Source of the DNA: a virus
IMG/VR virus record: IMGVR_UViG_3300021957_000079
Coordinates: 1 to 43,727 of that record
Length of the DNA stretch: 43,727 nucleotides
Reading direction: 5' to 3' (one strand)
Shown here piece by piece: positions 1,509 to 36,976 of this stretch (positions are counted from its first letter, which is position 1; the number at the start of each line of letters is the position of its first letter). The notes below the pieces were generated by a model that was not told where the DNA came from, ran no database searches, and worked only from the letters and a program-made list of their open reading frames with translations. Made by a program: the position numbers and the translations under genes.

Positions 1509-1919
1509 TTAAACGATGCGGGCTTTAATAAAATGAGTTCCGTTTGCAGTTTTTTCGTGCATAATCTCTATAGACAAACCACCCTCAATCTTGTGGGAAA
1601 TTCCGTCATCATTAATATCTTCACCGTTTTCATCTTTACCTGTGCGTCCACCAAATTGTGTTAGTGGCATGGAATACTTTCCACCTTCTTCTGATAAGTC
1701 AGGCATATCAAATGAAAGAGAAAGTCTACCTAACTTTTCTTGCATCTTGTTAAGACAGTGTTCTGGAACAAGATGTTCCATTTGTCCCATTGCGCCTAAA
1801 AATCCATTGATACGTTCTACCATCTTTGGATTTGTTACATCATTAGAAAAGTCAGAACCATCCATTGGATAACCAGCATCAGTTGCCTTTTCGGCAATGT
1901 AGTTACTAAAGTTCTTCAT
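1509..1919 (-). CDS. Hypothetical protein with capsid-targeting-like N terminus
   Basis: A 136-aa protein. I prefer the second ATG (1919) over an in-frame ATG at 1928: AGAGG then sits 9 bases upstream, whereas it would abut the first ATG. With this start the protein begins MKNFSNYIAE followed by K. That closely matches the T4 internal-protein leader MKTYQEFIAE, which targets proteins into the prohead and is removed by protease gp21 after [I/L]xE. The rest is a compact domain with Gly/Asp-rich loops and a C-terminal beta region (GLSIEIMHEKTANGTHFIKARIV). I do not recognise that domain. The likely role, an internal head protein, is inferred from the leader and from neighbouring virion genes. 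Confidence 0.75.
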   Translation of the reverse strand: MKNFSNYIAEKATDAGYPMDGSDFSNDVTNPKMVERINGFLGAMGQMEHLVPEHCLNKMQEKLGRLSLSFDMPDLSEEGGKYSMPLTQFGGRTGKDENGEDINDDGISHKIEGGLSIEIMHEKTANGTHFIKARIV

Positions 1920-2046
1920 CTTTATCATCCTCTACTTTTTTCTTTTTCTTGTTTGGGTTAACCGAAAGAATTTCTTGAAGAACCTCTTCCTGAGGCTCTT
2001 CTTGAATTTTCATTGGTTTACCGTTTGCACCATATCTAATAGTCAT
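1906..2046 (-). CDS. Small hypothetical protein (46 aa)
   Basis: A 46-aa acidic/lysine-rich protein starting MTIRYGANGKPMKIQEE and ending in a KKKKKVEDDKDEEL tail. The frame extends further upstream, but a TAAGGAG ribosome binding site lies 5 bases before the ATG at 2046, so I place the start there. The 3' end overlaps the next gene by 14 bases. The short beta-like N terminus with a charged tail has no family I recognise. It is probably real because of the good ribosome binding site and because it fills the space exactly. Confidence 0.65.
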   Translation of the reverse strand: MTIRYGANGKPMKIQEEPQEEVLQEILSVNPNKKKKKVEDDKDEEL

Positions 2047-2057
2047 AGTATTACTCC

Positions 2058-2522
2058 TTAAGCAATAGTAGCGCCATTGTTTGACAATACAACCCACTTA
2101 GAGTTAGTAAAGATCAAAGTAACAGTATCATTAACATCTGCAAAGGTAATTGTAGAACCGTTTGCAAAGTTTGATGGTGTAATAACAGAGTTACCACCGT
2201 CTGCAATCATAGTCAAGATTTTGATTTGTCCTTGAGCGCCATCTGCAAGTCCAGCTGCGTGAGCACCACCAGCAGTTACAGTATCAATATGTGTTATTGA
2301 TGTACCTGTATTAGCAGTTACATCTGGTGCAGTGTTAGTATTTGTGATCGCCTGTGGAACGCCATCCAAACCCAACCAAGTTGGAATGTTTTGGAATGTG
2401 TCACGAACAGTGATTTTTTTGTTTACAGGGTTTCCTGATGGATCATCAATAACATGCAACAAGTCTTCTGATGCAATTGCGTTACCTAGATCGTTTAGTG
2501 CCGTGATTTTCTTATCAGCCAT
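2058..2522 (-). CDS. Putative virion structural protein, beta-rich
   Basis: A 154-aa protein. The N terminus ([27 protein letters not shown]) is the type of short repeatable motif that opens many marine phage tail and decoration proteins. The remainder is Thr/Ala/Asn/Gly-rich and beta-predicted, ending in a strand-turn-strand module ([32 protein letters not shown]) common at the C terminus of phage fibre or capsid-decoration proteins. An AGGAGAT ribosome binding site precedes the ATG. The neighbours are a coiled-coil protein and an Ig-like protein, so a small exposed virion component is likely. The exact position in the particle is unknown. Confidence 0.75.
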
Positions 2523-2547
2523 TTTTATCTCCTAATGGTTTAAACCT

Positions 2548-2802
2548 TCAACTCAATGCAGTTTGTACTGCACTATCGTCTTGCGAAGGGATGCTACTGG
2601 CGGGATTCGCCTCACCTAATTGTCCTAGAAAAACATCACATTGTTGGATTGCACCATTAAGTGCGTTTCCTTGTGCTGTCAACTGTGACTTCATTTTATC
2701 CATTTGCTGCAACTGACTTGTTACTTTATCCAAGTCAGTTTGCAGTTCATGTTTCTTTTGTTCAATATCATTAACACTTAGTGTTTTATCATTTTTTGAC
2801 AT
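2548..2802 (-). CDS. Small coiled-coil protein
   Basis: An 84-aa protein. The second of two adjacent ATG codons (2802) is preferred because AAAGGA lies 6 bases upstream. Residues about 10-60 form a heptad-like coiled coil (IEQKKHELQTDLDKVTSQLQ onward). This is followed by a Gln/Ala-rich helix with one cysteine (QQCDVFLGQLGEANP) and a short Ser-rich tail. This arrangement is frequent in small phage chaperone or spacer proteins, but I cannot assign a family. It lies between two putative virion proteins with short gaps. Confidence 0.7.
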   Translation of the reverse strand: MSKNDKTLSVNDIEQKKHELQTDLDKVTSQLQQMDKMKSQLTAQGNALNGAIQQCDVFLGQLGEANPASSIPSQDDSAVQTALS

Positions 2803-2826
2803 CATATATCCTTTTGTTTATACTAC

Positions 2827-3369
2827 TTATGCAACCGCTGTGTTAGTTGCTGTACCAGCAGGAACTGCAACACCAGAGTTAACTGTTGTACCAGTATCTT
2901 TGATTGTTCCACCAGCAAGTGCAATGTTTTGTGAAGCAATTGACAATACGTCACCAGCAGATACAGTTGAACCAGCTGCACCGATTGTATGTCTGAATAC
3001 AAGTTTGTTAGTACCTGTACCAGATTGATACGTTGCACTCAACGAAGCAGCAGAACCGCCACCCGCTTGTGAGTTAGTGATTGCGATTGTTGGTGAACCT
3101 GTTACAGTTACCTTCTCATTGAAAGTAAGTCTAACATCAATATTACCACCAGCACTTACATCAAATGCTGCTCCAACGAATGCCGATTTATTAATGTCTG
3201 CACCAGCGATTGCTGTTGCTAATCCACCGATTGAGCAAATAACTTCTTCAAGTCCTTTACCGTTTAGTTGTACCCAACCTTTTGATGTTGCGTATACGTC
3301 TTCTTTTTGAGCTGCAGTAAGCCACTTTGGTTTCGCTTCATCTGCATCTGTGTTTCCCCATAGGGCCAT
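2827..3369 (-). CDS. Putative virion protein with an SwmB/Ig-like domain
   Basis: A 180-aa protein. Residues 1-65 (MALWGNTDADEAKPKWL...GWVQLNGKGLEEVICSIGGL) look like the N-terminal module of a marine phage structural protein. Residues about 65-175 fit the bacterial Ig-like/SwmB repeat pattern, with the order VxLTFNEKVTVTGSPTIAI, then ATYQSGTGTNKLVFRHTI, then SIASQNIALAGGTIKDTGT. Such domains are surface-adhesion beta sandwiches in bacterial proteins and often decorate phage capsids or tails. GGAGAAAGACT precedes the ATG. A late-promoter-like element is nearby at 3403-3410. The Ig-like assignment rests on pattern memory and needs a profile search. Confidence 0.75.
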   Translation of the reverse strand: MALWGNTDADEAKPKWLTAAQKEDVYATSKGWVQLNGKGLEEVICSIGGLATAIAGADINKSAFVGAAFDVSAGGNIDVRLTFNEKVTVTGSPTIAITNSQAGGGSAASLSATYQSGTGTNKLVFRHTIGAAGSTVSAGDVLSIASQNIALAGGTIKDTGTTVNSGVAVPAGTATNTAVA

Positions 3370-3402
3370 AGTCTTTCTCCTTATTTAAAGATTTTACTCT
3401 TC

Positions 3403-3410
3403 TATTTATC
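3403..3410 (-). promoter_or_regulatory. Possible degenerate late promoter
   Basis: The minus strand reads GATAAATA, one mismatch from the T4 late-promoter consensus TATAAATA. It lies about 35 bases upstream of the Ig-like virion gene and overlaps the stop region of the gene before it. It is weaker than the exact matches elsewhere in the window. Confidence 0.35.
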
Positions 3411-3918
3411 TAAATCCATATCTCTTCAATTGAGATATAGTGTTTGAGGGGGATGTGTGATGAATCCCAATACCACCAGCAATCTCCCATTCCTTAATGT
3501 TTTTGATATAATCATCAATTAAGATATTAGGATTATTGCCAGTTGTGGCATAATTTACTTTATCTGCACGTTTAACTAAATGAATCTTACCAGTAGGTTT
3601 TGCGTTTTTAGACAACCATGCCTTTTTGCCAGGCCTACTGTTTGAATCGTTAGACGAATATGCAGATAAAATATTTGCATTATATTTATTTATTAATTTC
3701 CACATTCTTTGTGCGCCAGGCATCCAAGGTAACGTATGCCAGAAATCCTTCTTTGCACGAATTTCTTCCCAACGTGTTTCCTTTTCTACCTTGTCAAACT
3801 GTTTACCAGAGAGTTGTTTATACCCCCCTAGTAAATCAACAATCACCATATCCATATCACAATAGATACTTGGCAATTCTTCTTCATTAACATTAGTAAG
3901 TTCGACAAGATGACGCAT
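3406..3918 (-). CDS. HAD-superfamily 5'-nucleotidase-like protein
   Basis: A 170-aa protein. HAD motif I is present as D21-M-D23 in YCDMDMVIVDLLGG, where the first aspartate would be the nucleophile. Motif II is plausibly LSAYSSND (about 84-91). The conserved lysine may be in KRADK (about 116-120), and motif IV is the D135-D136 pair in NILIDDYIKNI. The length and layout resemble the NT5C-type 5'(3')-deoxyribonucleotidase group found in phages, which removes phosphate from nucleoside monophosphates. The substrate is uncertain. It starts at an ATG that nearly abuts the stop of the upstream gene, within the virion-associated block, so a role on a non-nucleotide substrate is also possible. Confidence 0.8.
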   Translation of the reverse strand: MRHLVELTNVNEEELPSIYCDMDMVIVDLLGGYKQLSGKQFDKVEKETRWEEIRAKKDFWHTLPWMPGAQRMWKLINKYNANILSAYSSNDSNSRPGKKAWLSKNAKPTGKIHLVKRADKVNYATTGNNPNILIDDYIKNIKEWEIAGGIGIHHTSPSNTISQLKRYGFR

Positions 3919-3919
3919 A

Positions 3920-4459
3920 TTAGTCTTCTTTATCTTTTACTTTTGTTTCAATCTTATTCATAGGTTTACCTGTCATTGTGGTTTCACCATCTTTAGATTC
4001 TTTTTTACCTTTACCACTCAAATATGCTGGGGTATCATCTTCTGCACCCTCAACCTTTTTTGCAGCTTCAGCCCACATATCAGAAATATGTTTTGCGGCA
4101 AGTTGAGCAAGAGTAGGTCTTACTGACTCTTCAACTGACTCTTTCTTCTTTGCTTTTCTCATTGCAGCAAAGTCTTTACCATCAATGTCACCATCTTTAT
4201 CTTTGTCGAGTTTCTTTTGTCCACCAACTAACTTCTCAGTCTTTAGTGTTTCCTCAACGTCATATTGTTTACCGCCGATAGTAAAGGTTTTTTCACCTTT
4301 TTCTTTTGCCATTTTTGCAGCGTGAATATAGTTATTTTCACTCTTCTCTTTTTCTTTTTCTTTTTTAGAGATTGCAATTGCAGCTTGCTGAGCAGGAGAC
4401 ATTGCCTCTAACACAGCACTCTCAATACTACCCTCTTTAGTTTTAAGATACTTGGACAT
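3920..4459 (-). CDS. Lys-rich modular protein with an EF-hand-like loop
   Basis: A 179-aa, highly charged protein. Residues 85-96 read DKDKDGDIDGKD, a near-perfect EF-hand/dockerin calcium-binding loop (D1, D3, D5, G6, I8, D9, D12), followed by F-A-A-M-R. A short segment about 55-70 (TFTIGGKQYDVEETL) looks like a small beta module. The rest is helical and Lys/Glu-rich. It belongs to the same compositional class as the next, 441-aa protein and is separated from it by only a few bases; CAGGAGAAAT precedes the ATG. I infer a head-core or virion-internal component. The calcium-binding assignment rests on the motif alone. Confidence 0.7.
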   Translation of the reverse strand: MSKYLKTKEGSIESAVLEAMSPAQQAAIAISKKEKEKEKSENNYIHAAKMAKEKGEKTFTIGGKQYDVEETLKTEKLVGGQKKLDKDKDGDIDGKDFAAMRKAKKKESVEESVRPTLAQLAAKHISDMWAEAAKKVEGAEDDTPAYLSGKGKKESKDGETTMTGKPMNKIETKVKDKED

Positions 4460-5785
4460 TTATTTCTCCTGTGAGTTTATTTTGTTAATTGTTTCAGTTG
4501 CTTTCGCAATCTGTAATTGTAGTTGAGCGATACGAGTTTTCTTCTTATCATCTCTTGCAGCGTCTACATCTTTGGCAGAATCTGGTCTATTGTCAATCTT
4601 TGGTTTGTCTGCTTCCTCTTTCTTGTCCCAAGGAGCTTTCTTCAAAGTTACTTTTGATTTACCTTTTTTAGATGACTGTGATGCCTTTGCAAGTTTCTTT
4701 GCAAGGTCTGCCTTTTTGTTTTCATCAAGTTCAACCTCTTCTTTATACATATTCAACTCAAATGGTTTTGAACCACCTTTGTTGTAAACTTGGATTTGTA
4801 GGTTTCCACCTTTACCTTTTAATCTGTATTTGTTTGTTTTACCCTCAGAAGGTTTCTTTGGGCCGGTTGCAACTTTACTGTCAATCTCTTTTGGGTCTAC
4901 AGTAATTCCTAATTTCTTTTTTGCGTAATCATATGCGTGTTGCATTGCACCACTAAAATCTTTATGATACAAGTCATACTTCTCATCAAGTTCACCTTCT
5001 TTCTTTGTCGCCATCAACTTGTCATGGTTGTCGATTGCATACTTGTCTGCATCTTCTTTATTGTCAAACTCTTTTGCAATACTACCATCTGCATTGTATA
5101 CACAGAACTTGTCATCTTTTTTCTTAACGTGATCAGTTGGATCCATTTCTTCTGGTAATGGTTGTGATGGCCATTGAACTGGTTCAACACCTTCCTTTTT
5201 ACCTTTACCATGATCCATAACTTTTTTACCAAGTGGTGTCAAGTTACCTTTTTTATCATACATCAGATCAATGAGTTTCTTTTCTGCAGCAGTCATCTCA
5301 TCAATTTGAACATCTTCATTCTGTCTCTTCAGAACAGCAGCGACTTGTTTATGATCAGACAAACCTTTTTTGATTTTTTCAATAGCAGCGACAGCACCTG
5401 ACATATTTCCACCAGCATATCTTTTATCTGATGCAATACCAATTGCCATTTTAATTTCTTTTGTAGAGTATCCCTCTTGAACAGATTCTCTTTCGACTTG
5501 TTCTAACTCAACAAACTTTTGACCCTTCTGTTGATACATGTCTTTCCAATCTTTACCGTACATTGTATTCAACATCTTTTCGATATCTTTTACACTACCA
5601 GTAACAGATGTTCCATCATCACCCTTTAAGTCTTTTGCCTTCAGTTTAAACTTTTTAATTAACTTTTGAAAGTCTGGGTCAGTCTTGTCGTGATCTAACA
5701 TATCAATCGTTGCCTCTTGAAGTTTAGAAGAATTATACTGAACCTCTGCCAGAGCCTCCGTCATTGTTTTAGCGTATCTAGTCAT
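4460..5785 (-). CDS. Modular Lys-rich protein with repeated [I/L]DE linkers
   Basis: A 441-aa protein built of short modules joined by acidic linkers. Similar linkers occur as NEDVQIDE (to residue 163), KEGELDE (to 268) and KEEVELDE (to 355), each followed by a new basic module. Module 2 (about 105-155, YSTKEIKMAIGIASDKRYAG onward) and the KFCVYNADGSIAKEF module (about 226-262) are types I recall in marine phage proteins of unknown function. The [I/L]DE ends match the [I/L]xE pattern cut by T4-type protease gp21, so this may be a prohead polyprotein. The last 80 residues are Lys/Asp-rich and helical. It starts just after the 91-aa gene, with a GGGAAAAAAT ribosome binding site. Confidence 0.75.
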   Translation of the reverse strand: MTRYAKTMTEALAEVQYNSSKLQEATIDMLDHDKTDPDFQKLIKKFKLKAKDLKGDDGTSVTGSVKDIEKMLNTMYGKDWKDMYQQKGQKFVELEQVERESVQEGYSTKEIKMAIGIASDKRYAGGNMSGAVAAIEKIKKGLSDHKQVAAVLKRQNEDVQIDEMTAAEKKLIDLMYDKKGNLTPLGKKVMDHGKGKKEGVEPVQWPSQPLPEEMDPTDHVKKKDDKFCVYNADGSIAKEFDNKEDADKYAIDNHDKLMATKKEGELDEKYDLYHKDFSGAMQHAYDYAKKKLGITVDPKEIDSKVATGPKKPSEGKTNKYRLKGKGGNLQIQVYNKGGSKPFELNMYKEEVELDENKKADLAKKLAKASQSSKKGKSKVTLKKAPWDKKEEADKPKIDNRPDSAKDVDAARDDKKKTRIAQLQLQIAKATETINKINSQEK

Positions 5786-6053
5786 TTATTTTTTCCCAAA
5801 TTTTTACGACAAGTTTCCCTGTACCTTTTATTAATCTATGATACTCCATCATGGGTATCGTATATATCTTTTCTCTTTTCAATTCTACTGGAAGCATATT
5901 ATCTAGTTGCAATTTCCAACCACTTCCTTCGAGAACCATTACATCTCTTGTATGTTTGTCACGATGCCATATCAATTCTTCCTCTTGTACATCATCCTTA
6001 AACTCTCTGAGGAAATGTCCCTCTTCTTGAATATCAGAATATGGATTTACCAA
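5778..6053 (-). CDS. Small cupin-like conserved phage protein
   Basis: A 91-aa protein whose start appears to be TTG, overlapping the 3' end of the 652-aa gene. No in-frame ATG lies near the N terminus. The core LIWHRDKHTRDVMVLEG, then GWKLQLDNMLP, then IYTIPMMEYHRLIKG has the His-rich strand and turn pattern of a minimal cupin (small-molecule or metal-binding beta barrel). The two histidine-containing strands would be motifs 1 and 2. I recall similar small proteins in marine myophages without a known function. It is coupled on both sides to large virion-module proteins. Confidence 0.7.
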   Translation of the reverse strand: MVNPYSDIQEEGHFLREFKDDVQEEELIWHRDKHTRDVMVLEGSGWKLQLDNMLPVELKREKIYTIPMMEYHRLIKGTGKLVVKIWEKIND

Positions 6054-8005
6054 AAGAAATTACCGCCGCCACTTAAACCAAGTTGTTTTGCATAACGTGG
6101 AAGATTACAACTCCAGTATCCTGCCTTGGTTCTATCTTTTTGTTGATCACAGTTGTGACGAGCAGCAAAACTTTTTCTTGCATCCTTATCTGACAACTTA
6201 ACCTTTAGTCCACTCGTATCACCGAATGTAACCTTTTTAACATTACCTGTCTTTGGGTCTTTAACATACACATAGTATTTTTTAGGCCCACCGACCTTTG
6301 GTTTATTTAGTTCTACATCTTTTTCTTCAAACATCATAGGACAATCTAGTGGAACATGTTCTCCCTGATACATATCGTATTTACCGATATCACCTTCCAT
6401 CAGTTCCTTATCAAAACCTACTGGACTGTAAACTCCTACTTTATATGCATCTCTTTTCTCTGTAAAGAAATCATAGTACTTTTCTGAACCAACACGATAT
6501 TGATTTGATTCGATTAAACTTGATGTTTCGCATTCGTTACAACAATCTGGTGTTCCACACTTTGTATGTTCCTTAAACGAAAACGGTTTCTTCTCTTGGC
6601 CTGGCGTCATGTCTTGAAACAATTCCCTTCTGGCATTTGTGCCAACTTCACGAGCATCTTCTTTTTCTTCTTTTTGCCCTTTAGCCTGTTTCCACAAGTC
6701 TGCATCAGCAGTTGTTCTTGTCTTACCACCAGTAAGGAATGAGTTCACTCTTGCGAATGCCCACTGTTGTGGAGTAGTTCCTGGCCTATGTCCTGTTTTC
6801 CATGCAGCCATACCTCTATCGTATACTTTCTTTAGAATACCATATGATATACCAGACTTATCTGATTTGTCAACAAGCCCTTTAATCTTTTCGTCTAACT
6901 GAACTTCTTCTTTAGGAACACAGTTTGGCACCATTTTGCCATTCTTCTTTTTCATTCCCTGTTGTCTGTGAGTATCCCAACATGGGTCTTCCTCACCAAA
7001 CATATCTTTAAATTTCTTTGTGTACTTAGATGGTTTAGTATCTGCATTACCATCTCCTGGCGCAGGCCCATCTTTCTTCTTTGCAAAGTGTGCCGCACGT
7101 TTCTGTTTAGTGGACTTTGACATTGCATCACCATCAGCATCTTTTGCATAATACTTGGCTGGTTCAGTACCTTTTCTATCTTTAATATCTTTATCTTGTT
7201 TTACTTCGTACAACCACTTCTTGTGTGTAGTACCATCTTGTTCTGCAAACACAAGATAGTTAGTTCCTCTACGAATAACTTTACCAGAAACACCAGTGTA
7301 ATTATCTTCTACGATATCACCGATAGCATATAGTGTACCTTCGATATACATATCACGAATAACATCTTCTTCAGTCTGTTCTACTTGATGTGTGATAAAA
7401 GATTCACGAATACCCATATACTTACGAACATCTTTGAATAGAGACATTCCCTGTTTAAAGTTTTTAGGAAGTCCATTCTTAAACGAATCAAAATCATCAG
7501 ATGATGCCGCAGCTCTCATCTTAGATGCAGACATTCCAGTAACACCTTCTGCATCTGGGTCTCTTTCACCAGCAGATACAACTTCAATGTTATCAAAACC
7601 ATAGTAACCATGTCCTGATTCAACACCATTGTATTTGTTCAACAACGTATCAAACTCTTGTACTCTGTCAGAACCAACAACCATTATTACTGATTTATGG
7701 CCTTTGTTGTGTAGTGAGACTGCAATCTCAAATACGTTTCTTGCTTTATCTACAACAATTTTTCTGGCATGTTTTGGGAACATCTTCTTCATGTATGCAA
7801 CTTTCTTTACATACGGAAGAGGGTCTTTCTTAGGATTTTCAGAGTGAGATGCAAACACATAATATGGAGCGCCGACATTCTTTTTAGCCTGTCCAGCAAC
7901 TGCATCCATCAATTTTTCATGTCCAGTTGTTGGTGGATTGAATCTACCAAAAGTGAACACAGCAGTGTCACCTCTAGCTTCTCTTATTTCTGAAAACTTC
8001 TTCAT
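6047..8005 (-). CDS. Nucleotidyltransferase fusion, candidate gp21-processed polyprotein
   Basis: A 652-aa multidomain protein. Residues 1-9 (MKKFSEIRE) resemble a capsid-targeting leader with an IRE end. Residues 14-190 are a cytidylyltransferase-like Rossmann domain: FGRFNPPTTGHEKL (19-32) matches the HxGH region and TGMSASKMR (156-164) the ISSTxxR region, as in NMN or phosphopantetheine adenylyltransferases. After an IRE at 199-201 comes a small beta domain (about 205-268). Residues about 370-440 (after LDE at 370-372) match the DUF5824 type, SYGILKKVYDRGMAAWKTGH. A Cys cluster (C483, C488, C489, C492) follows. The C terminus (575-652, KKYYVYVKDPKTGNVKKVTFG onward) is a conserved marine-phage module. 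The substrate is unknown, as is whether the domains separate. Confidence 0.85.
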   Translation of the reverse strand: MKKFSEIREARGDTAVFTFGRFNPPTTGHEKLMDAVAGQAKKNVGAPYYVFASHSENPKKDPLPYVKKVAYMKKMFPKHARKIVVDKARNVFEIAVSLHNKGHKSVIMVVGSDRVQEFDTLLNKYNGVESGHGYYGFDNIEVVSAGERDPDAEGVTGMSASKMRAAASSDDFDSFKNGLPKNFKQGMSLFKDVRKYMGIRESFITHQVEQTEEDVIRDMYIEGTLYAIGDIVEDNYTGVSGKVIRRGTNYLVFAEQDGTTHKKWLYEVKQDKDIKDRKGTEPAKYYAKDADGDAMSKSTKQKRAAHFAKKKDGPAPGDGNADTKPSKYTKKFKDMFGEEDPCWDTHRQQGMKKKNGKMVPNCVPKEEVQLDEKIKGLVDKSDKSGISYGILKKVYDRGMAAWKTGHRPGTTPQQWAFARVNSFLTGGKTRTTADADLWKQAKGQKEEKEDAREVGTNARRELFQDMTPGQEKKPFSFKEHTKCGTPDCCNECETSSLIESNQYRVGSEKYYDFFTEKRDAYKVGVYSPVGFDKELMEGDIGKYDMYQGEHVPLDCPMMFEEKDVELNKPKVGGPKKYYVYVKDPKTGNVKKVTFGDTSGLKVKLSDKDARKSFAARHNCDQQKDRTKAGYWSCNLPRYAKQLGLSGGGNFFW

Positions 8006-9252
8006 TTATCCCATGCCTTTATTGCAGTAAAGTTATTAAAACTAAATTCCATTCTATCTACGAGTTTAACTGCATCGCCGGATACTCTGTCGATTGCAAC
8101 ATAACCTTCTGGATTAACCACTTTAAATCCATTAGCAGTCTTAATAAAGGTATCAGTTAATCCCTTAACACTATTTAGTTTACTTACAATCCCCATCTTA
8201 GCATCTACTAAATGGCCTTGGAACGCAATAACACTTTCTAAATTTTTCGTATGTTTCTTCATTTCACGAACATACTCTGTTTGGAGATTAGTATATTTCT
8301 CTTTACCCTTATCACTTTTTACTTTGTCAATCTGTTTCTGAATTGACATTTCTACCCACTTTTCATATCCCTTAGCATGTGCCTTTGGATTAGTAATTTT
8401 TTGTCCTTCACGAACCTTACTATTATTATAAGTCTTTAGTGACGCACCAGCAAGAGCTCCTGTCATACTATCTTGTAGTTTTAAGAACTTTGCTAACATA
8501 GGTGCATTAATTTTTTGGAATGTAGAACCAGCAGATGATAGTGACTTAGTAACCTTTGCAGTTTCATTAGAAGTCATTGTCGCTTTACCAGATACATCTT
8601 TATATGTTGCATCATCCATCCATACAGATGAAGGTTTAGATAACCCTTTGATGTTTGCACCAAATGATGCTTTCATATCTTGTAATGCATCACCAGTATA
8701 TGTTGTGTGCCATACAATACCAATTTTTGCAGTATTGATTTGTTTACCAATATCTGATGTAGGGTCTACTGCATATACAATTGTATTAGGTTGAAATGTG
8801 ATGAATGACTTTCCATCAATTTTCTCTGAAGACTTATCTTCTGATGTAAACATCAAGTCTCCTTGAAGAACACCTTTAATACCTAACTTAGAAAACTCTT
8901 CTAATGCAACTTTGAACTTCGTATTTAATGCACCAGATAATCCATCATCATCAATCTCTTTTGCGGTCTTGTACAACTTTGGAGTTGCGTTGAATACTGA
9001 CTTCTTTGCAACAAAGAACTTACCATCAGCAGGGTCAATACCAGCAAAGATTGCAGGCGCACCGTCCCACTTAACAGTCATGTTTACGGATGAACGTGCC
9101 TCACCAGCAAGCATATCTCTTAAAGAACGAACAAAGTTAATTGCAGCTCTACCGCCTGGCACACCAAAGTTTAATATCTCATCTTCGATATGTTCTAGGT
9201 GTAGATTTTTACCACCCTTGTCTTCTGTCAAGTATGAACTAAAGTTTATCAT
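8002..9252 (-). CDS. DUF6267-like protein with ligase-like KxDG motif
   Basis: A 416-aa protein that I match from memory to the DUF6267 family of marine T4-like phages. It begins MINFSSYLTE, a capsid-targeting-like leader. K61-W-D63-G64 in NMTVKWDGAPAIFAG looks like motif I of the covalent nucleotidyltransferase superfamily (DNA/RNA ligases), where the lysine is adenylated. LQGDLMF (129-135) fits motif III. PEGYVAI (381-387) and AVKLVDR (394-400) near the C terminus look like motifs IV and V. The III-IV spacing of about 250 residues is far longer than in classical ligases and is filled by a helical insert. An AAAGG ribosome binding site lies 7 bases before the ATG. Ligase activity is a hypothesis; a capsid-packaged role is inferred. 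Confidence 0.8.
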   Translation of the reverse strand: MINFSSYLTEDKGGKNLHLEHIEDEILNFGVPGGRAAINFVRSLRDMLAGEARSSVNMTVKWDGAPAIFAGIDPADGKFFVAKKSVFNATPKLYKTAKEIDDDGLSGALNTKFKVALEEFSKLGIKGVLQGDLMFTSEDKSSEKIDGKSFITFQPNTIVYAVDPTSDIGKQINTAKIGIVWHTTYTGDALQDMKASFGANIKGLSKPSSVWMDDATYKDVSGKATMTSNETAKVTKSLSSAGSTFQKINAPMLAKFLKLQDSMTGALAGASLKTYNNSKVREGQKITNPKAHAKGYEKWVEMSIQKQIDKVKSDKGKEKYTNLQTEYVREMKKHTKNLESVIAFQGHLVDAKMGIVSKLNSVKGLTDTFIKTANGFKVVNPEGYVAIDRVSGDAVKLVDRMEFSFNNFTAIKAWDK

Positions 9253-10628
9253 TAATATGCCTTTAAATGTACACAGGAAGATTCTGATTCAGACTTAGCA
9301 TATCTATATGCAAGTTGTAAGAACTTCTGTTCTTTTCCTTCTAGTCGATTAAACATAAATGTTACTAGATATTTTGACTCTAACCAACCACTATCTTTTT
9401 TACCCAACTTCTTTTTAAATTCATTCAAGTCTATTTTACTATCTTCACCAGCCTGTAAATATTCTGCATAGAACATTTCAAAAAACTTATCATTGTCACT
9501 TTTAATAAGTTTTTCAATTTGTTTTCTTTGAGGAATTGGTTCTGCACCAGCAGCAATAAGAACTTTTCCTATTGGACTTTTTGGGCCACCATCTCCACTC
9601 AACTTACCATGTTTTGCTTTATTACCAATAAGTTCGCCTTGGAAGGCAGGGAATGTTCTAAATTGCATTTCCATACCACCAGCACCAAAAAGATAACCAT
9701 CTTTAGAACTAAAGAAGTCTCTTTTACCTAATGACTTTTTTGTATACTTTGGGGATTTGTGAGGTTTCTTATAGTTAAGTTGTGCAAACTTAACCTTTGT
9801 TGTTTTCTTTAGTGACACACCTATAATGTCACGAGCGGCATATGCCTTCAACAATTCTTGATTAATATATGGTAGTGAAGGATCAGCAGCAAAGTCATAG
9901 TTACTAATAGAACTATCCACAGTCATCCAAATATCTGCTGGTGTCCATTTATTAATATCTGTAAAATAATTTTGTCCAGAGTTTTTGAATAAACCCTCAA
10001 TCATTTTCACAAAGTCTGAACCTCTGTGGAATGTATATTGTTTTCTACCTAATGCCTTGTACATACCCTTTGCAACAGATATAGAAGATGTAACCCAATC
10101 ATCACTTAGGTTTTCAATCTCATCCCAAGATGCATCAACCTTAACTTGACTATATGCAGCTTGCAACTCTAACATGTTAAAGTCTGTTTTTGGATTATTC
10201 CAGATTGCTTGGTTGTATACACACTGTGCAGATTCTGCTGCTCGTGTACCAGAAGAACCACCACCAGAACCTTTACCACCACCGAAAGTGCCAGTCTTTT
10301 CTATTTCCGTAATTCTTAGGAGTTTACCATTAGATGCATTGAAGGAGGCTTTGCCACGAGGAAATGCAGTGTCATAATCACCTTTATCAAATGCAACCTT
10401 TAGTGCATTGTCAATCCAAGTAATAGATACTTCACCTACGTCTGTTGGAATTTTAGTTCCATCATCAATAATAGACTGAAGAATACTGGCATTCTGCCTT
10501 TTAGCAACATCTGCTTTACTTAGATTTGATTCTGATAACTCAGAGTATGAGCTTTGAATTCTAACAACATGATTTACTTTGGACTCGTCCACAGGATTTA
10601 GTTGTCGGAAATACTTTCTGACTGACAT
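9252..10628 (-). CDS. Conserved hypothetical protein heading the late virion module
   Basis: A 458-aa protein of no known fold to me. Features are a helical N terminus, a flexible Gly/Ser stretch around residues 114-126 followed by ESAQCVYNQAIWNN, and a central region with HRGSDFVKMIEGLF. A C-terminal part carries basic strands and MEMQFRTFPAFQGELIGNKA. I recall similar proteins in cyanophages and jumbo phages, where the glycine-rich stretch also precedes an ESxQCxY motif. GGAGAACTTGATAA precedes the ATG. It is the first gene after an exact late-promoter match, so it is probably made late and may be a virion protein. It is directly coupled to the KxDG protein. Confidence 0.75.
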   Translation of the reverse strand: MSVRKYFRQLNPVDESKVNHVVRIQSSYSELSESNLSKADVAKRQNASILQSIIDDGTKIPTDVGEVSITWIDNALKVAFDKGDYDTAFPRGKASFNASNGKLLRITEIEKTGTFGGGKGSGGGSSGTRAAESAQCVYNQAIWNNPKTDFNMLELQAAYSQVKVDASWDEIENLSDDWVTSSISVAKGMYKALGRKQYTFHRGSDFVKMIEGLFKNSGQNYFTDINKWTPADIWMTVDSSISNYDFAADPSLPYINQELLKAYAARDIIGVSLKKTTKVKFAQLNYKKPHKSPKYTKKSLGKRDFFSSKDGYLFGAGGMEMQFRTFPAFQGELIGNKAKHGKLSGDGGPKSPIGKVLIAAGAEPIPQRKQIEKLIKSDNDKFFEMFYAEYLQAGEDSKIDLNEFKKKLGKKDSGWLESKYLVTFMFNRLEGKEQKFLQLAYRYAKSESESSCVHLKAY

Positions 10629-10664: not shown

Positions 10665-10672
10665 TATTTATA
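10665..10672 (-). promoter_or_regulatory. T4-type late promoter (TATAAATA)
   Basis: An exact TATAAATA on the minus strand, 37 bases upstream of the 458-aa gene. The predicted start (about 6 bases downstream) is a G near 10659. A TTGACA at 10692-10697 lies 19 bases upstream, inside the end of the previous gene, so a weak sigma70 overlay is possible. It would drive the whole module down to position 1. Confidence 0.75.
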
Positions 10673-19579: not shown

Positions 19580-19794
19580 GAGAAAAGTGGCATTTGTTCG
19601 TCAGAAGAAAAGTGTTTTTCAATCATGTCAATAACATCTTGTGCATCTGCAATTTTAACCAATTCTGATTCTACTGCTTCTGCGATATCTGAATGTTCTC
19701 CGATACCAGCTGGATTCTTTAAGTATACTGCAATGTTTGCTTTGTGTAGAGCAATCTTGCCTTCGTTATGTAATTTTATAGCATTAAGCATCAT
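19576..19794 (-). CDS. Small conserved hypothetical protein
   Basis: A 72-aa acidic helical protein (HNEGKIALHKANIAVYLKNPAGIGEHSDIAEAVESELVKIADAQDVID). The tail EQMPLFS resembles a clamp-interacting peptide. It overlaps the end of the ATP-grasp gene by 11 bases and has AAAGG 8 bases before the first of two ATGs. I recall similar small ORFs near gp43 in marine T4-like phages; the function is unknown. Its stop codon lies inside the -35 of the gp43 promoter. Position between RegA/clamp-loader genes and the polymerase suggests a replication-linked role. Confidence 0.7.
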   Translation of the reverse strand: MMLNAIKLHNEGKIALHKANIAVYLKNPAGIGEHSDIAEAVESELVKIADAQDVIDMIEKHFSSDEQMPLFS

Positions 19795-21142
19795 TATCTT
19801 TACCTTTCATTGTTGTAATAATGAACTTCTTCTGAGGGTCAACCATGACATTCATTTTTGTCATTGCGAACCTATTTAGAAGAACATCAGTTCCCATTTC
19901 ACTTCTATCATCAAGGCCAAACATGAACTGATAACTGTGACCCATGAATTCCATGTCCAACTCAACAACAGGCCGTCTATCTACACCACCACCAGTTGTT
20001 GCTTCGTACATCTTAACAAGATTAGTAGTAATTGTTTTACCGTTCAATGTGAAAGTAATCTTCTTACCATTAATCTTTATATCTTCTGCATGTAATACAG
20101 AAAGTATTCCATTTCCAGTATCGAACTTGCCTTCCATCTCACCAAATGGTAATACGGATACTACTTCATGGTATCCACATTTGGTGGGGGCAGAGTATCT
20201 AGATTCTGTATTTTTGTAATGTTGAATAATTTCCTTTGCAATGTTTAGTCCAGAGTTAGCATCTTCAATACCGTCTGTGCCAGGCGAACTGTTTACTTCT
20301 AGAAAGTATGGTTGTCCTTTATATGGAATAAAGTCAACTGCAACACAATCACCATCAACAGCCTTCGCAGCAATTAAACATTGACGCACTTCTTCTTCTG
20401 ATAATTTGTATGGTTTTGGTTTTGCACCTTGAGATACATTTGATCTGAAATCACCTTCAATCACATCTCTACGCATAGTTCCAATAATCTTATTACCAAC
20501 AATTACCGCACGAACATCATAATCTGTTTTCATATACTCTTGTATAAGAATATCTGTATCTTTATCTTGTTTGTATAACAACTGCACAATTGAATCTAAG
20601 GCTCTCTTTGATTCAATAAACAGTACACCAACACCTTTAGAACCCCTAAGAGTTTTAAGGATGATTGGGAATTTTGTATCAAGTTCTTCTAATGCAGAAT
20701 CAATACTATCTTCATTAGGAATTAGAACTGTCTTTGGTTGGAGTAGTTTAAAATCTTTAAGTCGAACATAACTTCTGTACTTATCTGCACAGATACTAAT
20801 TGTAGTTCTGTTATTAATACAACTAATACCAATTCGTTCCAACTCAGAGATTAAATCTAACATACTATCTCTTGTTGGCGTACCACGAACAAATACAACC
20901 GTATCGTCTTTACTTACGTCAATACTATTATTGTTATCGGATAATGTGTGTTTTCCATTGTTGAAAGACAATGAAACTTCTTTGAAGTTGGCAAGGAAGG
21001 TTTCCATTCCCATCTTCTGAGCTTCTTTCTCAAACTTCTTTGCAGTGATTGACTTATCGCCAAACTCTACTGTAAGGATAACTACCTTATAGTTTTCCTC
21101 TGTTTTTTCTTCAACAATGAAATCCGAAAACGACTGTGCCAA
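19784..21142 (-). CDS. RimK-like ATP-grasp ligase fused to retropepsin-like protease
   Basis: A 452-aa fusion. The start is TTG directly after the regA stop, giving MAQSFSDFIVE, a capsid-targeting-like leader. Residues about 105-310 are an ATP-grasp domain of the RimK type (KFPIILKTLRGSKGVGV, ILIQEYMKTDYDVRAVIVG, then the metal site CVAVDFIPYKGQPYFLEVNSSPGTDG); such enzymes add amino acids to carboxyl groups. Residues about 323-445 match the retropepsin-like RimK-associated protease family: GKFDTGNGILSVLHAEDI with catalytic-type D341-T-G, then RRPVVELDMEFMGHSYQF and LDDRSEMGTDVLLNRF. In bacteria these two activities are usually separate genes. One chain would thus carry a peptide-bond-forming and a peptide-bond-cleaving domain. 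Substrates are unknown. Confidence 0.85.
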   Translation of the reverse strand: MAQSFSDFIVEEKTEENYKVVILTVEFGDKSITAKKFEKEAQKMGMETFLANFKEVSLSFNNGKHTLSDNNNSIDVSKDDTVVFVRGTPTRDSMLDLISELERIGISCINNRTTISICADKYRSYVRLKDFKLLQPKTVLIPNEDSIDSALEELDTKFPIILKTLRGSKGVGVLFIESKRALDSIVQLLYKQDKDTDILIQEYMKTDYDVRAVIVGNKIIGTMRRDVIEGDFRSNVSQGAKPKPYKLSEEEVRQCLIAAKAVDGDCVAVDFIPYKGQPYFLEVNSSPGTDGIEDANSGLNIAKEIIQHYKNTESRYSAPTKCGYHEVVSVLPFGEMEGKFDTGNGILSVLHAEDIKINGKKITFTLNGKTITTNLVKMYEATTGGGVDRRPVVELDMEFMGHSYQFMFGLDDRSEMGTDVLLNRFAMTKMNVMVDPQKKFIITTMKGKDNDA

Positions 21143-33095: not shown

Positions 33096-34379
33096 TTACA
33101 TGATGTTCGTAACTTGAACTCTTCTGTAATATACGTTGTCGTTTGCAGTCAAAGCACCTGAGCGAACAGTCGCACCACCAGCAAATGGGTTTGCAGTCAA
33201 GCCGTAGCGAGTTTTGAAACCGATTTTTGGTTGGAAAGTGTTTTCACCAACCGCACGAACCATTTGTAACGGAACGTATGGGCAGTAGAAAAGACCTGCA
33301 TCGTAAGGTGAAGTACCTTTATAACCCACTGTGAAGTACTGTTTTGCAGCACCGTTTGCAGCATATGGGTCGATGTACACTTTGTAACGTCCGTTAAGAA
33401 CACCAGCAAATGTGTTACCTGAGTCATCAACATTCAAGTTGTTGTTCAGAGCAGGAGTGTAATCCAATTGTCCAGCCATTTGAAGTGCAGATGCAACATC
33501 AGATGAACAGATAATCATGTTACCTTTTCCTCTACGAGTTTGTTGTGCGATTACGTTTGCTTCACGTTCCACTTGGAACATAAGTCCTTTAAACTTCTCA
33601 ACACTCCAACGGCCGTTTGAGTCAACGTCCATATCGAAAACACCACCAGTAGCAGTATCAACCTGAGCACCTGGCTTAGCAGTTACATAGATTGTACGAA
33701 CAACTTCACGGTTGATTTCGTTTAGGATTTCAGCAGATAGAATATTTGCAAGTTCTGTTTCAGCATCCAAACCGTGGATTGCTTTAAGGTCTTGCGCCAA
33801 TTCCATTGTGTATTCTGCTTTAAGAGCACGTGACTTAGCTTCTACTGAGTTCTTCTCAATTGAGAAAGACATTTCAGCGAATGCATTGTTTGATGCATCA
33901 CCTAATGCTTCTGCAGCAGCAGTTGTCATACCAGTACCACCAGTATATGTGCCTGGCGAACCATCGTTAAGAACAGCAGGGTTTGTACCAGCGTGTGTAC
34001 CAGCACCAGAGAAATCTGAGTCTGCTTCTGCATACTGATTTTCTGTACCGTTTTGAGCGCCGTAGCGTGAACGCATTGCAAAGATCAACCCTGTTGGGCC
34101 TGTCATTGGTTGTACACCAGCAACATCGTATGCAATTAGGTTAGGCATAGAACGTCTAACAAGTGAGATCAAAATTGGATCCCAATTATCAACGGCTGAG
34201 CCTGTTGCGTTAGTTGGTGCAGCTTCTGAAAGGAAGTTTGAGTCCTCACGAAGTGCTTTTTCTTGGTTTTCTAGGATAACAGTGGTTACGGCCTTACGAT
34301 AAGAATCCTTGATCTCTGGAAGATCGTTGTGTTCTAGGACTGGCTGCCACTTTTCCTGTAGATGTTCTGCATTGAACAT
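33096..34379 (-). CDS. 23: Major capsid protein gp23
   Basis: A 427-aa HK97-fold capsid protein. RRSMPNLIAYDVAGVQPMTGPTGLIFAMRSRYG is the diagnostic T4-like gp23 segment, and the C terminus GLTANPFAGG is also conserved. A prohead cleavage site is visible as NFLSE52|A53, so about 52 N-terminal residues are probably removed by gp21, as in T4 (after E65). It is shorter than T4 gp23 (521 aa), typical of marine relatives lacking the insertion domain. It is bracketed by a terminator plus late promoter on each side, so it forms a single-gene transcription unit. GGAGAAACTAAC precedes the ATG. Confidence 0.97.
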   Translation of the reverse strand: MFNAEHLQEKWQPVLEHNDLPEIKDSYRKAVTTVILENQEKALREDSNFLSEAAPTNATGSAVDNWDPILISLVRRSMPNLIAYDVAGVQPMTGPTGLIFAMRSRYGAQNGTENQYAEADSDFSGAGTHAGTNPAVLNDGSPGTYTGGTGMTTAAAEALGDASNNAFAEMSFSIEKNSVEAKSRALKAEYTMELAQDLKAIHGLDAETELANILSAEILNEINREVVRTIYVTAKPGAQVDTATGGVFDMDVDSNGRWSVEKFKGLMFQVEREANVIAQQTRRGKGNMIICSSDVASALQMAGQLDYTPALNNNLNVDDSGNTFAGVLNGRYKVYIDPYAANGAAKQYFTVGYKGTSPYDAGLFYCPYVPLQMVRAVGENTFQPKIGFKTRYGLTANPFAGGATVRSGALTANDNVYYRRVQVTNIM

Positions 34380-34418: not shown

Positions 34419-34439
34419 AAAAACGATATTCCTACCGTT
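34418..34439 (-). terminator. Rho-independent terminator after gp22
   Basis: On the minus strand AACGGTA pairs with TATCGTT (7 bp, one G-U) around a GGAA tetraloop, followed by TTTT. The hairpin starts at the gp22 stop codon, and the T-tract runs into the gp23 late promoter. Confidence 0.75.
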
Positions 34440-35601
34440 ATTTAGCTCGCTTTACATTCTTACTAATAGCACTCATATAAGTTGCCATAGCACCAGTTGT
34501 ATCGAAAGATTCGGCACCATCAGTTTCCGAGTCTAGAGATTCAGCGATAGTTGTTGCCTTTGGAAAATAGTTTTCCTTCAGCGTATCGAGTTTTTCTTTA
34601 AAAGATTCTTCGTTAACGAACTCTACTTCTTCAGATAGAGATTTAAACTTCTCTACTTCTGTGTCTGCGAGATCAGAAGAAACTTCTGCGAAAACACTTT
34701 CACGAACTAGTTCATCAGTTTTCTTCTTCATTGAAGCAGCAACGTCAATTTGTTCGTTCAGTTTGGATTCCAGTTCGTCAATCTTTGCAGATTGTTGACC
34801 AAGAATGTCGTACTTCTCATCTGGTACATCAATGTAATGTTCTTCGAACAATGATTTTAGTCCAGAAATGAAGTCCTCAGCGATTTCACCTTTGAGACCA
34901 CGCTCAACAGCAATTTCGTTTTCTTTCATCCACTCTTCTACAACGTAGTTCATGTATGAATCAACTTTTTCAGTCAACTCTTCACGCACTGCGTTTACTT
35001 CTTCTGCAATCTCTAAAGTCTTTGACTCTTCGATTCTTGCAACTTCAGAACGAAGTTTAGATTTAACAGCAGCTTCAAAGATTGTTGCTGCTTTGTCTTT
35101 AAATTCTTCAGAAATTTCTTCACCTTCAACAAGTGCTGAAACGTCTTCAGATACATCTACGGATGCAAGGCGGTCATCAAGAGTAGATTCGTCAACTGAC
35201 TCTTCTTTTTCTTCTTCTTCCTTATTCATCATTTTGTCGTAAGATGCTTTGAGTTCTGCTGATTTCATGGATTTCATTTCGTCATACATGGCATTCAACA
35301 TAGTCTCTTTAGTCATTTTTGCTTCTTCTAATGCTTCTGCATCATCATCAGCGAGATCTGTTTCTTCTTTGGTTGCACCGACAGCAGGTTCTGCAGCTTT
35401 CTTAACTTTAGCAGCAGTCTTCTTACCAGCACTGTCTTTTGATTCTGGATCATCGACAGCTTTACCCAAATCTTCAACGTCACCCTCTTGTTTATCCATT
35501 GAGTCGCCTTTACCAGCGCCATCAGTTGGTTGCTTCGCTTCTTCAAGCTCTGCACTGACTTCCGCCTCTAGTTCCTCAATTGTCTTGTCTAGTTCCGACA
35601 T
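34438..35601 (-). CDS. 22: Prohead core scaffold gp22
   Basis: A 387-aa acidic, helical scaffold protein that forms the prohead core and is degraded by gp21. Position between gp21 and gp23 and the C-terminal core (SSDLADTEVEKFKSLSEEVEF, then ESFKEKLDTLKENYF) identify it. It is longer than T4 gp22 (269 aa) because of a Lys/Glu/Asp-rich N-terminal third, as in marine relatives. Several LxE and IxE sites occur along it, as expected for a gp21 substrate. GGAGAAATCCCC precedes the ATG. Confidence 0.93.
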   Translation of the reverse strand: MSELDKTIEELEAEVSAELEEAKQPTDGAGKGDSMDKQEGDVEDLGKAVDDPESKDSAGKKTAAKVKKAAEPAVGATKEETDLADDDAEALEEAKMTKETMLNAMYDEMKSMKSAELKASYDKMMNKEEEEKEESVDESTLDDRLASVDVSEDVSALVEGEEISEEFKDKAATIFEAAVKSKLRSEVARIEESKTLEIAEEVNAVREELTEKVDSYMNYVVEEWMKENEIAVERGLKGEIAEDFISGLKSLFEEHYIDVPDEKYDILGQQSAKIDELESKLNEQIDVAASMKKKTDELVRESVFAEVSSDLADTEVEKFKSLSEEVEFVNEESFKEKLDTLKENYFPKATTIAESLDSETDGAESFDTTGAMATYMSAISKNVKRAK

Positions 35602-35646: not shown

Positions 35647-36294
35647 TTAAAGTTTCGACATAAATTTTGCGAAGGCTAATGCGGAAACATTTGACTGTCT
35701 CTTTCTTACACCTTCATTTATATCATTCTTGATTCCATTGATATCCACTTCTTTGAGAATACCGTTGTTCCAAATCCATTCTTTACCTTCCATAATACCT
35801 TCAACGAAGGCTTGAGGTGCAGAAGGGTCTGCAACAATATCTGCCGCAGTGGCAAGATAAAAATCGTCTTTCACATAATTAGCACCACTTTTATTTTCGA
35901 TAGAACCCATACCTCTTGAAGAGACACCTAGTTTTCCACCGTCTTTAATTAGTGCTTTCGCAATTTCCCCCATTGGAGTAGAGAGCAGTTTCGCCTCACC
36001 AATAAAGTTCTTTCCATCCGCTTCCAGTTTTGTGATCATGTGCGATACTCTGTCAAGATTGACAGTTGGGCCTTCTGGGTGTCCCAGTTCCCCAAACGCA
36101 CGACCTTCAGCAACAAATTCTTTGTTGTAACGAGTAACTTCTTTTTGAAGTACACCCATTGGGTAGACACGACCATTACGGTTCTTCATGTCTGCCTGCA
36201 TGAAAATTCCACGAATCTTCATATCCTTTTTACCATCGTCTTTTTCTTCAACGATGTATTCTACTTCTTGTATTTGTTCAGCGATAAGTTTCAT
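35647..36294 (-). CDS. 21: Prohead protease gp21
   Basis: A 215-aa serine protease that matures the prohead by cutting gp23 and core proteins at [I/L]xE sites. Conserved segments are the NRNGRVYPMGVLQKEV strand, GRAFGELGHPEGPTVNLDRVSH (catalytic histidine region) and GKLGVSSRGMGS (catalytic serine region). The start MKLIAEQIQEVEYIVEE at 36294 is chosen over an upstream start because it matches marine relatives and follows the previous gene's stop. Length is near T4 gp21 (212 aa). It is the predicted processing enzyme for the capsid-targeting-like leaders described elsewhere in this window. Confidence 0.95.
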   Translation of the reverse strand: MKLIAEQIQEVEYIVEEKDDGKKDMKIRGIFMQADMKNRNGRVYPMGVLQKEVTRYNKEFVAEGRAFGELGHPEGPTVNLDRVSHMITKLEADGKNFIGEAKLLSTPMGEIAKALIKDGGKLGVSSRGMGSIENKSGANYVKDDFYLATAADIVADPSAPQAFVEGIMEGKEWIWNNGILKEVDINGIKNDINEGVRKRQSNVSALAFAKFMSKL

Positions 36295-36804: not shown

Positions 36805-36976
36805 TATCTGTTTCTACCTCTGGTATATGATGTGTCACGAATGATTGTGCCACTTCTTGTCTTTTTGTTTCTAATGCATTTCCAACCTTAGTTGCAAGTG
36901 CAGCGTTAAAATGTGTTTCGGCGTTAATGTTATCACCATCACCAATTGCATTTACAAAACTTTTTACATTGTCCAT
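36797..36976 (-). CDS. gp67-like prohead core protein, 59 aa
   Basis: A 59-aa protein easily missed because of its size. It reads MDNVKSFVNAIGDGD, then a helix ETHFNAALATKVGNALETKR, then QEVAQSFVTHHIPEVETDSE. The pattern (short helix, small loop, F-x-x-A/M helix, then K/R-x-x-VA-x-S) is that of T4-like gp67, the prohead core protein encoded right after gp20. The ATG overlaps the gp20 stop (TAATG), and the 3' end overlaps the next gene by 8 bases, so all three are coupled. An IPE near the end is a possible gp21 site. Confidence 0.85.
   Translation of the reverse strand: MDNVKSFVNAIGDGDNINAETHFNAALATKVGNALETKRQEVAQSFVTHHIPEVETDSE

What the first reader, a model, noticed from the sequence alone, without database searches (positions are those of the whole stretch)
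1509..9252. Shared capsid-targeting-like leaders on unrelated proteins
The sequence shows proteins with different bodies opening with short leaders ending in [I/L/V]xE: MKNFSNYIAE (1919), MINFSSYLTE (9252), MKKFSEIRE (8005) and MAQSFSDFIVE (21142). A gp68-like core protein (36804) has MSKTLSQFKQNLPE. In T4, MKTYQEFIAE directs internal proteins into the prohead and is removed by gp21. gp23 here has LSE|A at residue 52, so gp21 of this phage probably keeps that rule. If so, a set of enzymes is packaged and injected with the DNA.
Basis: partly seen in the sequence, partly recalled or inferred. Interest (0 to 1): 0.8.

Follow-up and report, generated by a model that had tools for sequence, protein, structure and literature searches.

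The report
Head-packaging tags on marine phage enzymes
Several unrelated enzymes of a marine T4-like phage start with the short tag that phage T4 uses to load proteins into its head, and relatives of one of them that carry the tag have been found in purified virus particles, which suggests how such enzymes get packaged.

Summary
The leaders are real, and the capsid-targeting reading is probably right for most of them. The window is a T4-like marine virus fragment close to Methylophilales phage Melnitz.

Chance: the motif starts 4 of 54 genes; shuffled N-termini give 0.33.

Conservation: in homologues, positions 4, 8 and 10 are frozen and position 7 is mostly hydrophobic, while positions 2, 3, 5, 6 and 9 mostly drift. 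These are the positions mapped in T4 for targeting (4, 7) and processing (8, 10).

Protease: the window encodes a gp21-type protease. Its gp23 site FLSE|A aligns with T4's FLTE|A.

Virions: cytidyltransferase homologues with this leader were found by mass spectrometry in virions of S-SM1, S-SCSM1, S-CREM2 and S-SZBM1. The passages I read give no packaging signal, and one paper raises contamination. In S-SZBM1 the neighbouring DUF6267 protein lacks the leader and is not in the printed list.

Expression: a T4-type late promoter precedes the gene block holding two of the leaders, as in Melnitz.

Cleavage and injection are untested. RimK is the weakest cargo case. The system is known (T4 CTS/gp21); the phage group and cargo appear new. 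A further idea is that EEVELDE linkers mark a cleaved polyprotein.

The parts
1890..1919 (-). leader MKNFSNYIAE of the 136-aa protein 1509-1919 (no known domain)
   Evidence: motif in 16 of 19 homologous ORFs
1509..1919 (-). gene for the 136-aa protein of unknown function carrying the leader
   Evidence: no Pfam or PHROG hit; relatives in Melnitz and HTVC008M
9223..9252 (-). leader MINFSSYLTE of the DUF6267 protein
   Evidence: AlphaFold pLDDT below 50 over residues 1-17
8002..9252 (-). DUF6267 protein; invariant KWDG, EGxV and KxVDR motifs suggest a ligase-like covalent nucleotidyltransferase
   Evidence: PF19782 1.3e-105; alignment A1; best Foldseek hits are DNA ligases but not significant
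7979..8005 (-). leader MKKFSEIRE (9-residue form) of the cytidyltransferase-like protein
   Evidence: pLDDT below 50 over residues 1-10
6047..8005 (-). CTP_transf_like (NMNAT/cytidyltransferase-like) protein with a C-terminal DUF5824 module
   Evidence: homologues are virion proteins in S-SM1, S-SCSM1, S-CREM2, S-SZBM1
21110..21142 (-). leader MAQSFSDFIVE (TTG start) of the RimK-like protein
19784..21142 (-). RimK-like ATP-grasp ligase plus PF05618/retropepsin-like domain
   Evidence: YerA41 homologue annotated structural protein
10665..10672 (-). T4-type late promoter box TATAAATA, 37 bp before the first gene of the leader block
   Evidence: Melnitz has one 40 bp before the equivalent gene
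9252..10628 (-). first gene of the late block (phrog_1462), no canonical leader
35647..36294 (-). gp21 prohead protease (Peptidase_S77); likely start MKLIAEQ by comparison with relatives
   Evidence: PF03420 3.4e-32
34438..35601 (-). gp22-type scaffolding core protein, rich in [LIV]xE
   Evidence: PF25623 4.1e-68
34224..34226 (-). codon for E52 of gp23, predicted gp21 cut FLSE|A
   Evidence: aligned with T4 gp23 FLTE|A, the start of the 456-aa mature T4 chain
36556..36804 (-). gp68-position core protein, MSKTLSQFKQNLPE
   Evidence: gene order; Melnitz keeps VSKTLSQFKQELPE
36797..36976 (-). gp67-type prohead core protein
   Evidence: phrog_1064 prohead 7.6e-8
4460..5785 (-). modular late protein with VQIDE163, GELDE268 and VELDE355 linkers (candidate polyprotein)
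6890..6892 (-). E372 of the VQLDE linker before the DUF5824 module in the 6047-8005 protein
   Evidence: residues 365-371 have pLDDT below 50

Best explanation
The short leaders are capsid-targeting sequences of the T4 kind. Late in infection the tagged proteins are made alongside the capsid proteins, the leader docks them to the prohead core (gp22/67/68), gp21 cuts after the Glu at the end of F-x-x-[FY]-[IL]-x-E, and the mature proteins stay in the head and enter the next cell with the DNA. Shown here: the leaders, their site-by-site conservation, gp21 with an aligned gp23 site, the late promoter, and published virion detection of leader-bearing cytidyltransferase homologues. Inferred: docking to the core, cutting of these leaders, and injection. 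The cargo in this phage would be an NMNAT/cytidyltransferase-like enzyme, a probable ligase-like nucleotidyltransferase (DUF6267), a small unknown protein, and possibly a RimK-type peptide ligase.
For: Excess of leaders over shuffled N-termini in the window, Melnitz and S-SCSM1. Leader motif in 84/84 cyanophage cytidyltransferase ORFs, 43/47 window-type ORFs, 64/76 DUF6267, 44/69 RimK (most of the rest are longer at the start), 16/19 of the 1509 family and 36/36 of another late protein family. F4 and E10 invariant among leaders matching the motif, 8 is I/L, 7 mostly aromatic or hydrophobic, matching the T4 IPIII mutant map (targeting at 4 and 7, processing at 8 and 10; PMC9026906). In DUF6267 the free positions change faster than the body (0.44-0.85 nonsynonymous per codon pair against 0.19) while position 4 shows only synonymous changes. 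The leader lies outside the predicted folds. gp21 present; gp23 FLSE|A aligns with T4 FLTE|A. Virion detection of leader-bearing homologues: S-SM1 MKKFSAFLNE, S-SCSM1 MKSFLQFLKE, S-CREM2 MKNFSSFLTE, S-SZBM1 MRFRQFIIE. In S-SZBM1 the next-door DUF6267-like protein starts MAKNTHLEH without a leader and is not in the printed list. Late promoter at the head of the block, as in Melnitz.
Against: No virion proteomics was found for this phage or Melnitz. HTVC008M, a relative, keeps the genes but has short or altered leaders (MELLNE-type in DUF6267; MKTLKELLRK without Glu in the cytidyltransferase; 0/79 and 0/34 with the motif), so the strict form is not essential everywhere. The YerA41 RimK homologue is annotated structural without a recognisable leader. 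RimK is in the replication module with no conserved late promoter beside it. Published virion detections could be carry-over, as the S-CREM2 authors say. The motif is short, and some matches are false positives, for example DNA polymerase and the 1131-1493 family. The motif used to select sequences fixes positions 4, 8 and 10, so their conservation is slightly overstated.
Confidence: 0.82

Rival explanations
1. The leaders target the proteins to the prohead but are not always cut; the terminal Glu is only sometimes a protease site.
For: HTVC008M-type cytidyltransferases keep MKTLKELL but lack Glu. In T4 IPIII, Asp at position 10 blocks processing but not targeting (PMC9026906).
Against: E10 is invariant in the leader-bearing families of the window, and gp23 keeps FLSE|A.
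Confidence: 0.1
2. The leader is an N-terminal amphipathic helix that serves another purpose, such as binding a tail or membrane component or a partner enzyme, and resembles the T4 tag by convergence.
For: AlphaFold gives a short low-confidence helix at residues 4-6 or 4-7; the motif is short.
Against: The conserved positions coincide with the T4 targeting and processing positions; unrelated bodies share it; the C-terminal F-[IL]-x-E equals the gp23 cut site; virion detection of homologues.
Confidence: 0.06
3. Chance similarity among short AT-rich N-termini.
For: The regular expression has a background: internal Met peptides match at 0.45% (79 of 17487), and some N-terminal hits are plainly false.
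Against: 409 of 3782 genes in the fetched loci match (a biased sample); 84/84 conservation; purifying selection by codon position.
Confidence: 0.02

Closest known systems
Capsid targeting sequence (CTS) of T4 internal proteins IPII and IPIII (MKTYQEFIAE), cut by gp21
   Same: N-terminal position, 9-11 residue length, aromatic at 4, aromatic or hydrophobic at 7, I/L at 8, Glu at 10, unrelated bodies, gp21 in the genome with L-x-E in gp23
   Different: Cargo are enzymes (NMNAT/cytidyltransferase-like, ligase-like, RimK-like), not small IPs; phage group is the Kyanoviridae-like marine T4 group; one leader is a residue shorter
T4 Alt, a packaged and injected ADP-ribosyltransferase
   Same: An enzyme packaged in the head and cut by gp21, as reviewed in PMC9026906
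   Different: Alt's N-terminus (MELITELFDE) differs from these leaders; no Alt family hit was seen in the Pfam or PHROG searches
Virion-associated cytidyltransferase/NMNAT of cyanophages (T4-GC190; S-SCSM1, S-CREM2, S-SZBM1)
   Same: Homologous to the 6047-8005 protein, with the same leader
   Different: Those reports describe detection and speculate on injection; the passages read name no packaging signal, and one warns of contamination
Prohead-protease-processed ejection proteins of phiKZ-like phages
   Same: Head proteins cut after a short x-x-E motif and ejected, as reviewed in PMC9026906
   Different: Motif is S/A-x-E; a different phage lineage; no comparison was run here

Membership tests
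T4 capsid targeting sequence (CTS) | N-terminal peptide of about 10 residues on otherwise unrelated proteins | tested here: met
   Four window proteins; different Pfam assignments; leader-stripped bodies show no convincing blastp similarity (best E 0.22)
T4 capsid targeting sequence (CTS) | Targeting residues at positions 4 and 7 (Tyr and Phe in IPIII) | tested here: met
   F4 invariant; 7 is F/Y in nearly all RimK and cyanophage cytidyltransferases, F/Y/H/L/I/M in DUF6267
T4 capsid targeting sequence (CTS) | Processing residues at positions 8 (I/L) and 10 (E) | tested here: met
   not met in HTVC008M-type cytidyltransferases
T4 capsid targeting sequence (CTS) | Same register for MKKFSEIRE | tested here: inconclusive
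   One residue shorter; position 7 and 8 roles merge; conserved as F-x-x-[IL]-x-E in homologues
T4 capsid targeting sequence (CTS) | Genome encodes gp21 with L/I-x-E specificity | tested here: met
   PF03420 hit; FLSE|A aligned with T4 FLTE|A; cutting itself not assayed
T4 capsid targeting sequence (CTS) | Tagged protein is present in the virion | not testable with these tools
   No proteomics for this phage; met for cytidyltransferase homologues in published data
T4 capsid targeting sequence (CTS) | Leader removed by gp21; leader alone sufficient for packaging; cargo injected | not testable with these tools
   Needs bench work
T4 internal proteins IPI-III | Homologous mature body | tested here: not met
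   Bodies belong to other families or have no hit; only the leader is shared
Ligase-like covalent nucleotidyltransferases (DUF6267) | Motifs KxDG, EGxV and a final K-containing motif | tested here: met
   Invariant in 53 sequences sharing as little as 27% identity with the window protein
Ligase-like covalent nucleotidyltransferases (DUF6267) | Nucleotidyltransferase fold | tested here: inconclusive
   The eleven best Foldseek PDB hits are all ATP-dependent DNA ligases, but best E is 0.023 and TM about 0.2; no PDB sequence hit

The most novel reading that the evidence does not exclude
Besides the leaders, the late block encodes gp21-processed polyproteins: proteins such as 4460-5785 and the C-terminal half of 6047-8005 are strings of small modules joined by EEVELDE linkers (L-x-E|A/K). 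Homology between proteins ends at the linker in 35 of 41 homologous pairs, against 0-8% for positions 30-45 residues upstream and 7% at 30 downstream. If gp21 cuts there, one gene delivers several separate injected proteins, and modules are exchanged at cut sites.
Probability: 0.3. Interest if true: 0.8.

Novelty: new member of a known kind. Interest (0 to 1): 0.62.

Why it matters
Proteomics has repeatedly found a cytidyltransferase/NMNAT-like enzyme in cyanophage particles without a packaging mechanism, and contamination was a live worry. A T4-type targeting leader on that enzyme, and on other proteins of these abundant ocean phages, supplies a candidate mechanism, turns the leader into a predictor of packaged proteins from sequence, and makes cutting and injection directly testable. 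It also extends the CTS from small T-even proteins to enzymes in a different phage family.

Tried and rejected
HTVC008M as a second leader genome: motif not in excess (3 found, 1.19 expected); its homologues carry shortened or Glu-less leaders.

CTAAATA as an alternative late box: not enriched; TATAAATA used instead.

1131-1493 family (MKFDELNES in relatives) and DNA polymerase (MMNFYKNVIE): motif matches judged fortuitous because the window's own copies lack the motif and the matched stretch looks like part of the body.

Foldseek of DUF6267: ligases lead the list, but nothing is significant, so the enzyme call rests on motifs. PDB sequence search for the cytidyltransferase: nothing. NCBIfam could not separate NMNAT from cytidyltransferase.

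Position-shift control for EEVELDE: shifts of 8-15 overlap the motif and are uninformative; only the shifts of 30-45 were used, and shifts of 60 again run into other junctions.

The gp68-like leader could not be tied to T4 gp68 by sequence. Single-linkage clustering of all genes merged the modular late proteins into one cluster, so family counts come, not.
Full report
What the window is. A 43.7-kb virus record. By megablast its closest isolate match is Methylophilales phage Melnitz (79% identity over 64% of the first 20 kb), a T4-like phage placed in Kyanoviridae. It holds gp18-gp23 equivalents, gp21 (PF03420), gp22 (PF25623) and gp23 (PF07068), and T4-like replication and late genes.

The observation. 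The likely start of the first is the ATG at 1919. RimK starts with TTG right after an in-frame TAA. MKKFSEIRE is one residue shorter than the T4 form. With the motif M-x(1-3)-[FY]-x-x-([FYLIH][ILVF] or [ILV])-x-E, 4 of 54 genes match against 0.33 for shuffled N-termini; Melnitz has 7 of 211 against 1.23 and S-SCSM1 8 of 271 against 1.99, while HTVC008M shows no excess. Several of the S-SCSM1 hits are probably background. In T4 the motif finds ipII, ipIII and gene 61.1 (MKTFKEFIKE) plus background, 7 hits against 2.21. Over the whole collected set, internal Met peptides match at 0.45%.

Conservation. Viral contig searches brought in several hundred loci. The leader motif is present in 84/84 cyanophage-type cytidyltransferase ORFs, 43/47 window-type ones, 64/76 DUF6267, 44/69 RimK (most others are MxVPKFxxFIxE-like, longer at the start), 16/19 of the 1509 family and 36/36 of a lysine-rich late protein near the cyanophage enzyme. 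Within leaders, F4 and E10 do not change, 8 is I/L, and 7 is mostly aromatic or hydrophobic; 2, 3, 5, 6 and 9 vary in most families. At codon level in DUF6267, position 4 shows synonymous changes only, and the free positions carry 0.44-0.85 nonsynonymous differences per pair against 0.19 in the body. These are the positions that suppressor mutants of T4 IPIII assigned to targeting (4, 7) and processing (8, 10) (PMC9026906). The selecting pattern fixes 4, 8 and 10, a mild circularity that is small where nearly all sequences match. AlphaFold leaves residues 1-17 of DUF6267 and 1-10 of the cytidyltransferase-like protein below pLDDT 50, so the leaders appear to lie outside the folds.

The protease rule. 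T4 gp23 is 521 residues and its mature chain 456, so the cut follows residue 65. phmmer aligns T4 FLTE|A with FLSE|A, E52, of the window. A similar L-x-E site before A or I occurs at the equivalent place in gp23 of Melnitz, HTVC008M, S-SCSM1, S-CREM2 and S-SZBM1. The leaders end in the same way: NYIAE, SYLTE, DFIVE.

Virion evidence. The cytidyltransferase family (T4-GC190) was found in purified S-SM1 virions (PMC3037559). An NMNAT-annotated homologue is a virion protein of S-SCSM1 (PMC9602691), a cytidylyltransferase of S-CREM2 (PMC10665884) and one of S-SZBM1 (PMC9146016). Their N-termini are MKKFSAFLNE|A, MKSFLQFLKE|A, MKNFSSFLTE|A and MRFRQFIIE|A. The S-CREM2 authors suggest entry into the host but also raise contamination. 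A search for 'capsid targeting' together with 'cyanophage' found one review, which in the passages read does not make this link. In S-SCSM1 neighbouring genes of the block are also virion proteins. In S-SZBM1 the DUF6267-like protein next to the packaged enzyme begins MAKNTHLEH, without a leader, and is not in the printed virion list. This is a single, negative comparison.

Timing. All eight TATAAATA boxes in the window lie on the coding strand. They precede gp18, gp22, gp23, a gp3-like gene, uvsY and hsp20, and one lies 37 bp before 9252-10628, the first gene of the block with DUF6267 and the cytidyltransferase; one further box lies inside the replication module. Melnitz has a box 40 bp before its equivalent gene, which itself starts MQGFKTFLSE. 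The count in the window is above the shuffle mean (8 against 4.07; 1 of 100 shuffles reached 8).

Cargo. The 6047-8005 protein is a CTP_transf_like enzyme with invariant GRxNPPTxGH and SASKMR; its substrate is unknown. DUF6267 has invariant KWDG, EGxV and KxVDR, typical of covalent nucleotidyltransferases (family knowledge); structure search points to DNA ligases without significance. The 19784-21142 protein is a RimK-family alpha-L-glutamate ligase (TIGR00768 above cut-off) with a PF05618 domain. Its YerA41 relative with the same architecture is annotated structural but has no such leader, and its gene here lies between regA and the DNA polymerase, so this is the weakest case.

Counter-evidence. 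HTVC008M-type relatives have MELLNE|D or MYNDLLVE|D before DUF6267 and MKTLKELLRK, without Glu, on the cytidyltransferase. Either the leader is reduced there, or targeting without cutting suffices, as Asp10 mutants of IPIII suggest.

Beyond the finding. Modular late proteins are joined by EEVELDE linkers that match L-x-E. Homology between proteins stops at the linker in 35 of 41 pairs, compared with 0-8% at 30-45 residues upstream and 7% at 30 downstream. The VQLDE linker of 6047-8005 lies in a low-confidence stretch. This fits gp21-cut polyproteins, but also a recombination linker; the data do not decide.

Verdict. The leaders are real, under selection, and very probably T4-type capsid targeting sequences. 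Packaging is well supported for the cytidyltransferase family, likely for DUF6267 and the 1509 protein in this lineage, and open for RimK. Cutting and injection remain inference.

Noticed in passing
window 4460-5785 and 6047-8005; relatives in L002, L022, L080, L082, L171, L173, L303: Repeated EEVELDE linkers between shuffled modules; homology between proteins ends at the linker in most pairs.
   Followed up: partly
window 8002-9252: DUF6267 has invariant KWDG, EGxV and KxVDR, suggesting a ligase-like covalent nucleotidyltransferase.
   Followed up: partly
L003 22856-23524 (Melnitz 65855-66523) and HTVC008M 106562-107224: A Zeta_toxin/AAA_33 P-loop kinase family with leader-like starts (MKTFAELQE|G, MERFIIQE|G), another candidate cargo.
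   Followed up: partly
L349 18966-19130 (T4 gene 61.1): T4 gene 61.1, a 54-aa hypothetical protein, starts MKTFKEFIKE, a CTS-like leader.
   Followed up: no
window, minus strand: All eight TATAAATA boxes are on the coding strand, most just before late genes; Melnitz shows a similar pattern.
   Followed up: partly
window 19784-21142; L177: RimK-like ligase fused to a PF05618/retropepsin-like domain; the YerA41 relative with the same fusion is annotated structural.
   Followed up: partly
L181 18257-19420, L180 6710-7939: phrog_3561, a 934-position family of unknown function, matches only the leader and following linker of the cyanophage enzymes, a hint that leader plus linker moves as a unit.
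   Followed up: no
L298:348-1715 and 14 relatives: A 455-aa protein family with the leader in all 15 members (MMLKFKEYLRE|LTISP), no known domain.
   Followed up: no
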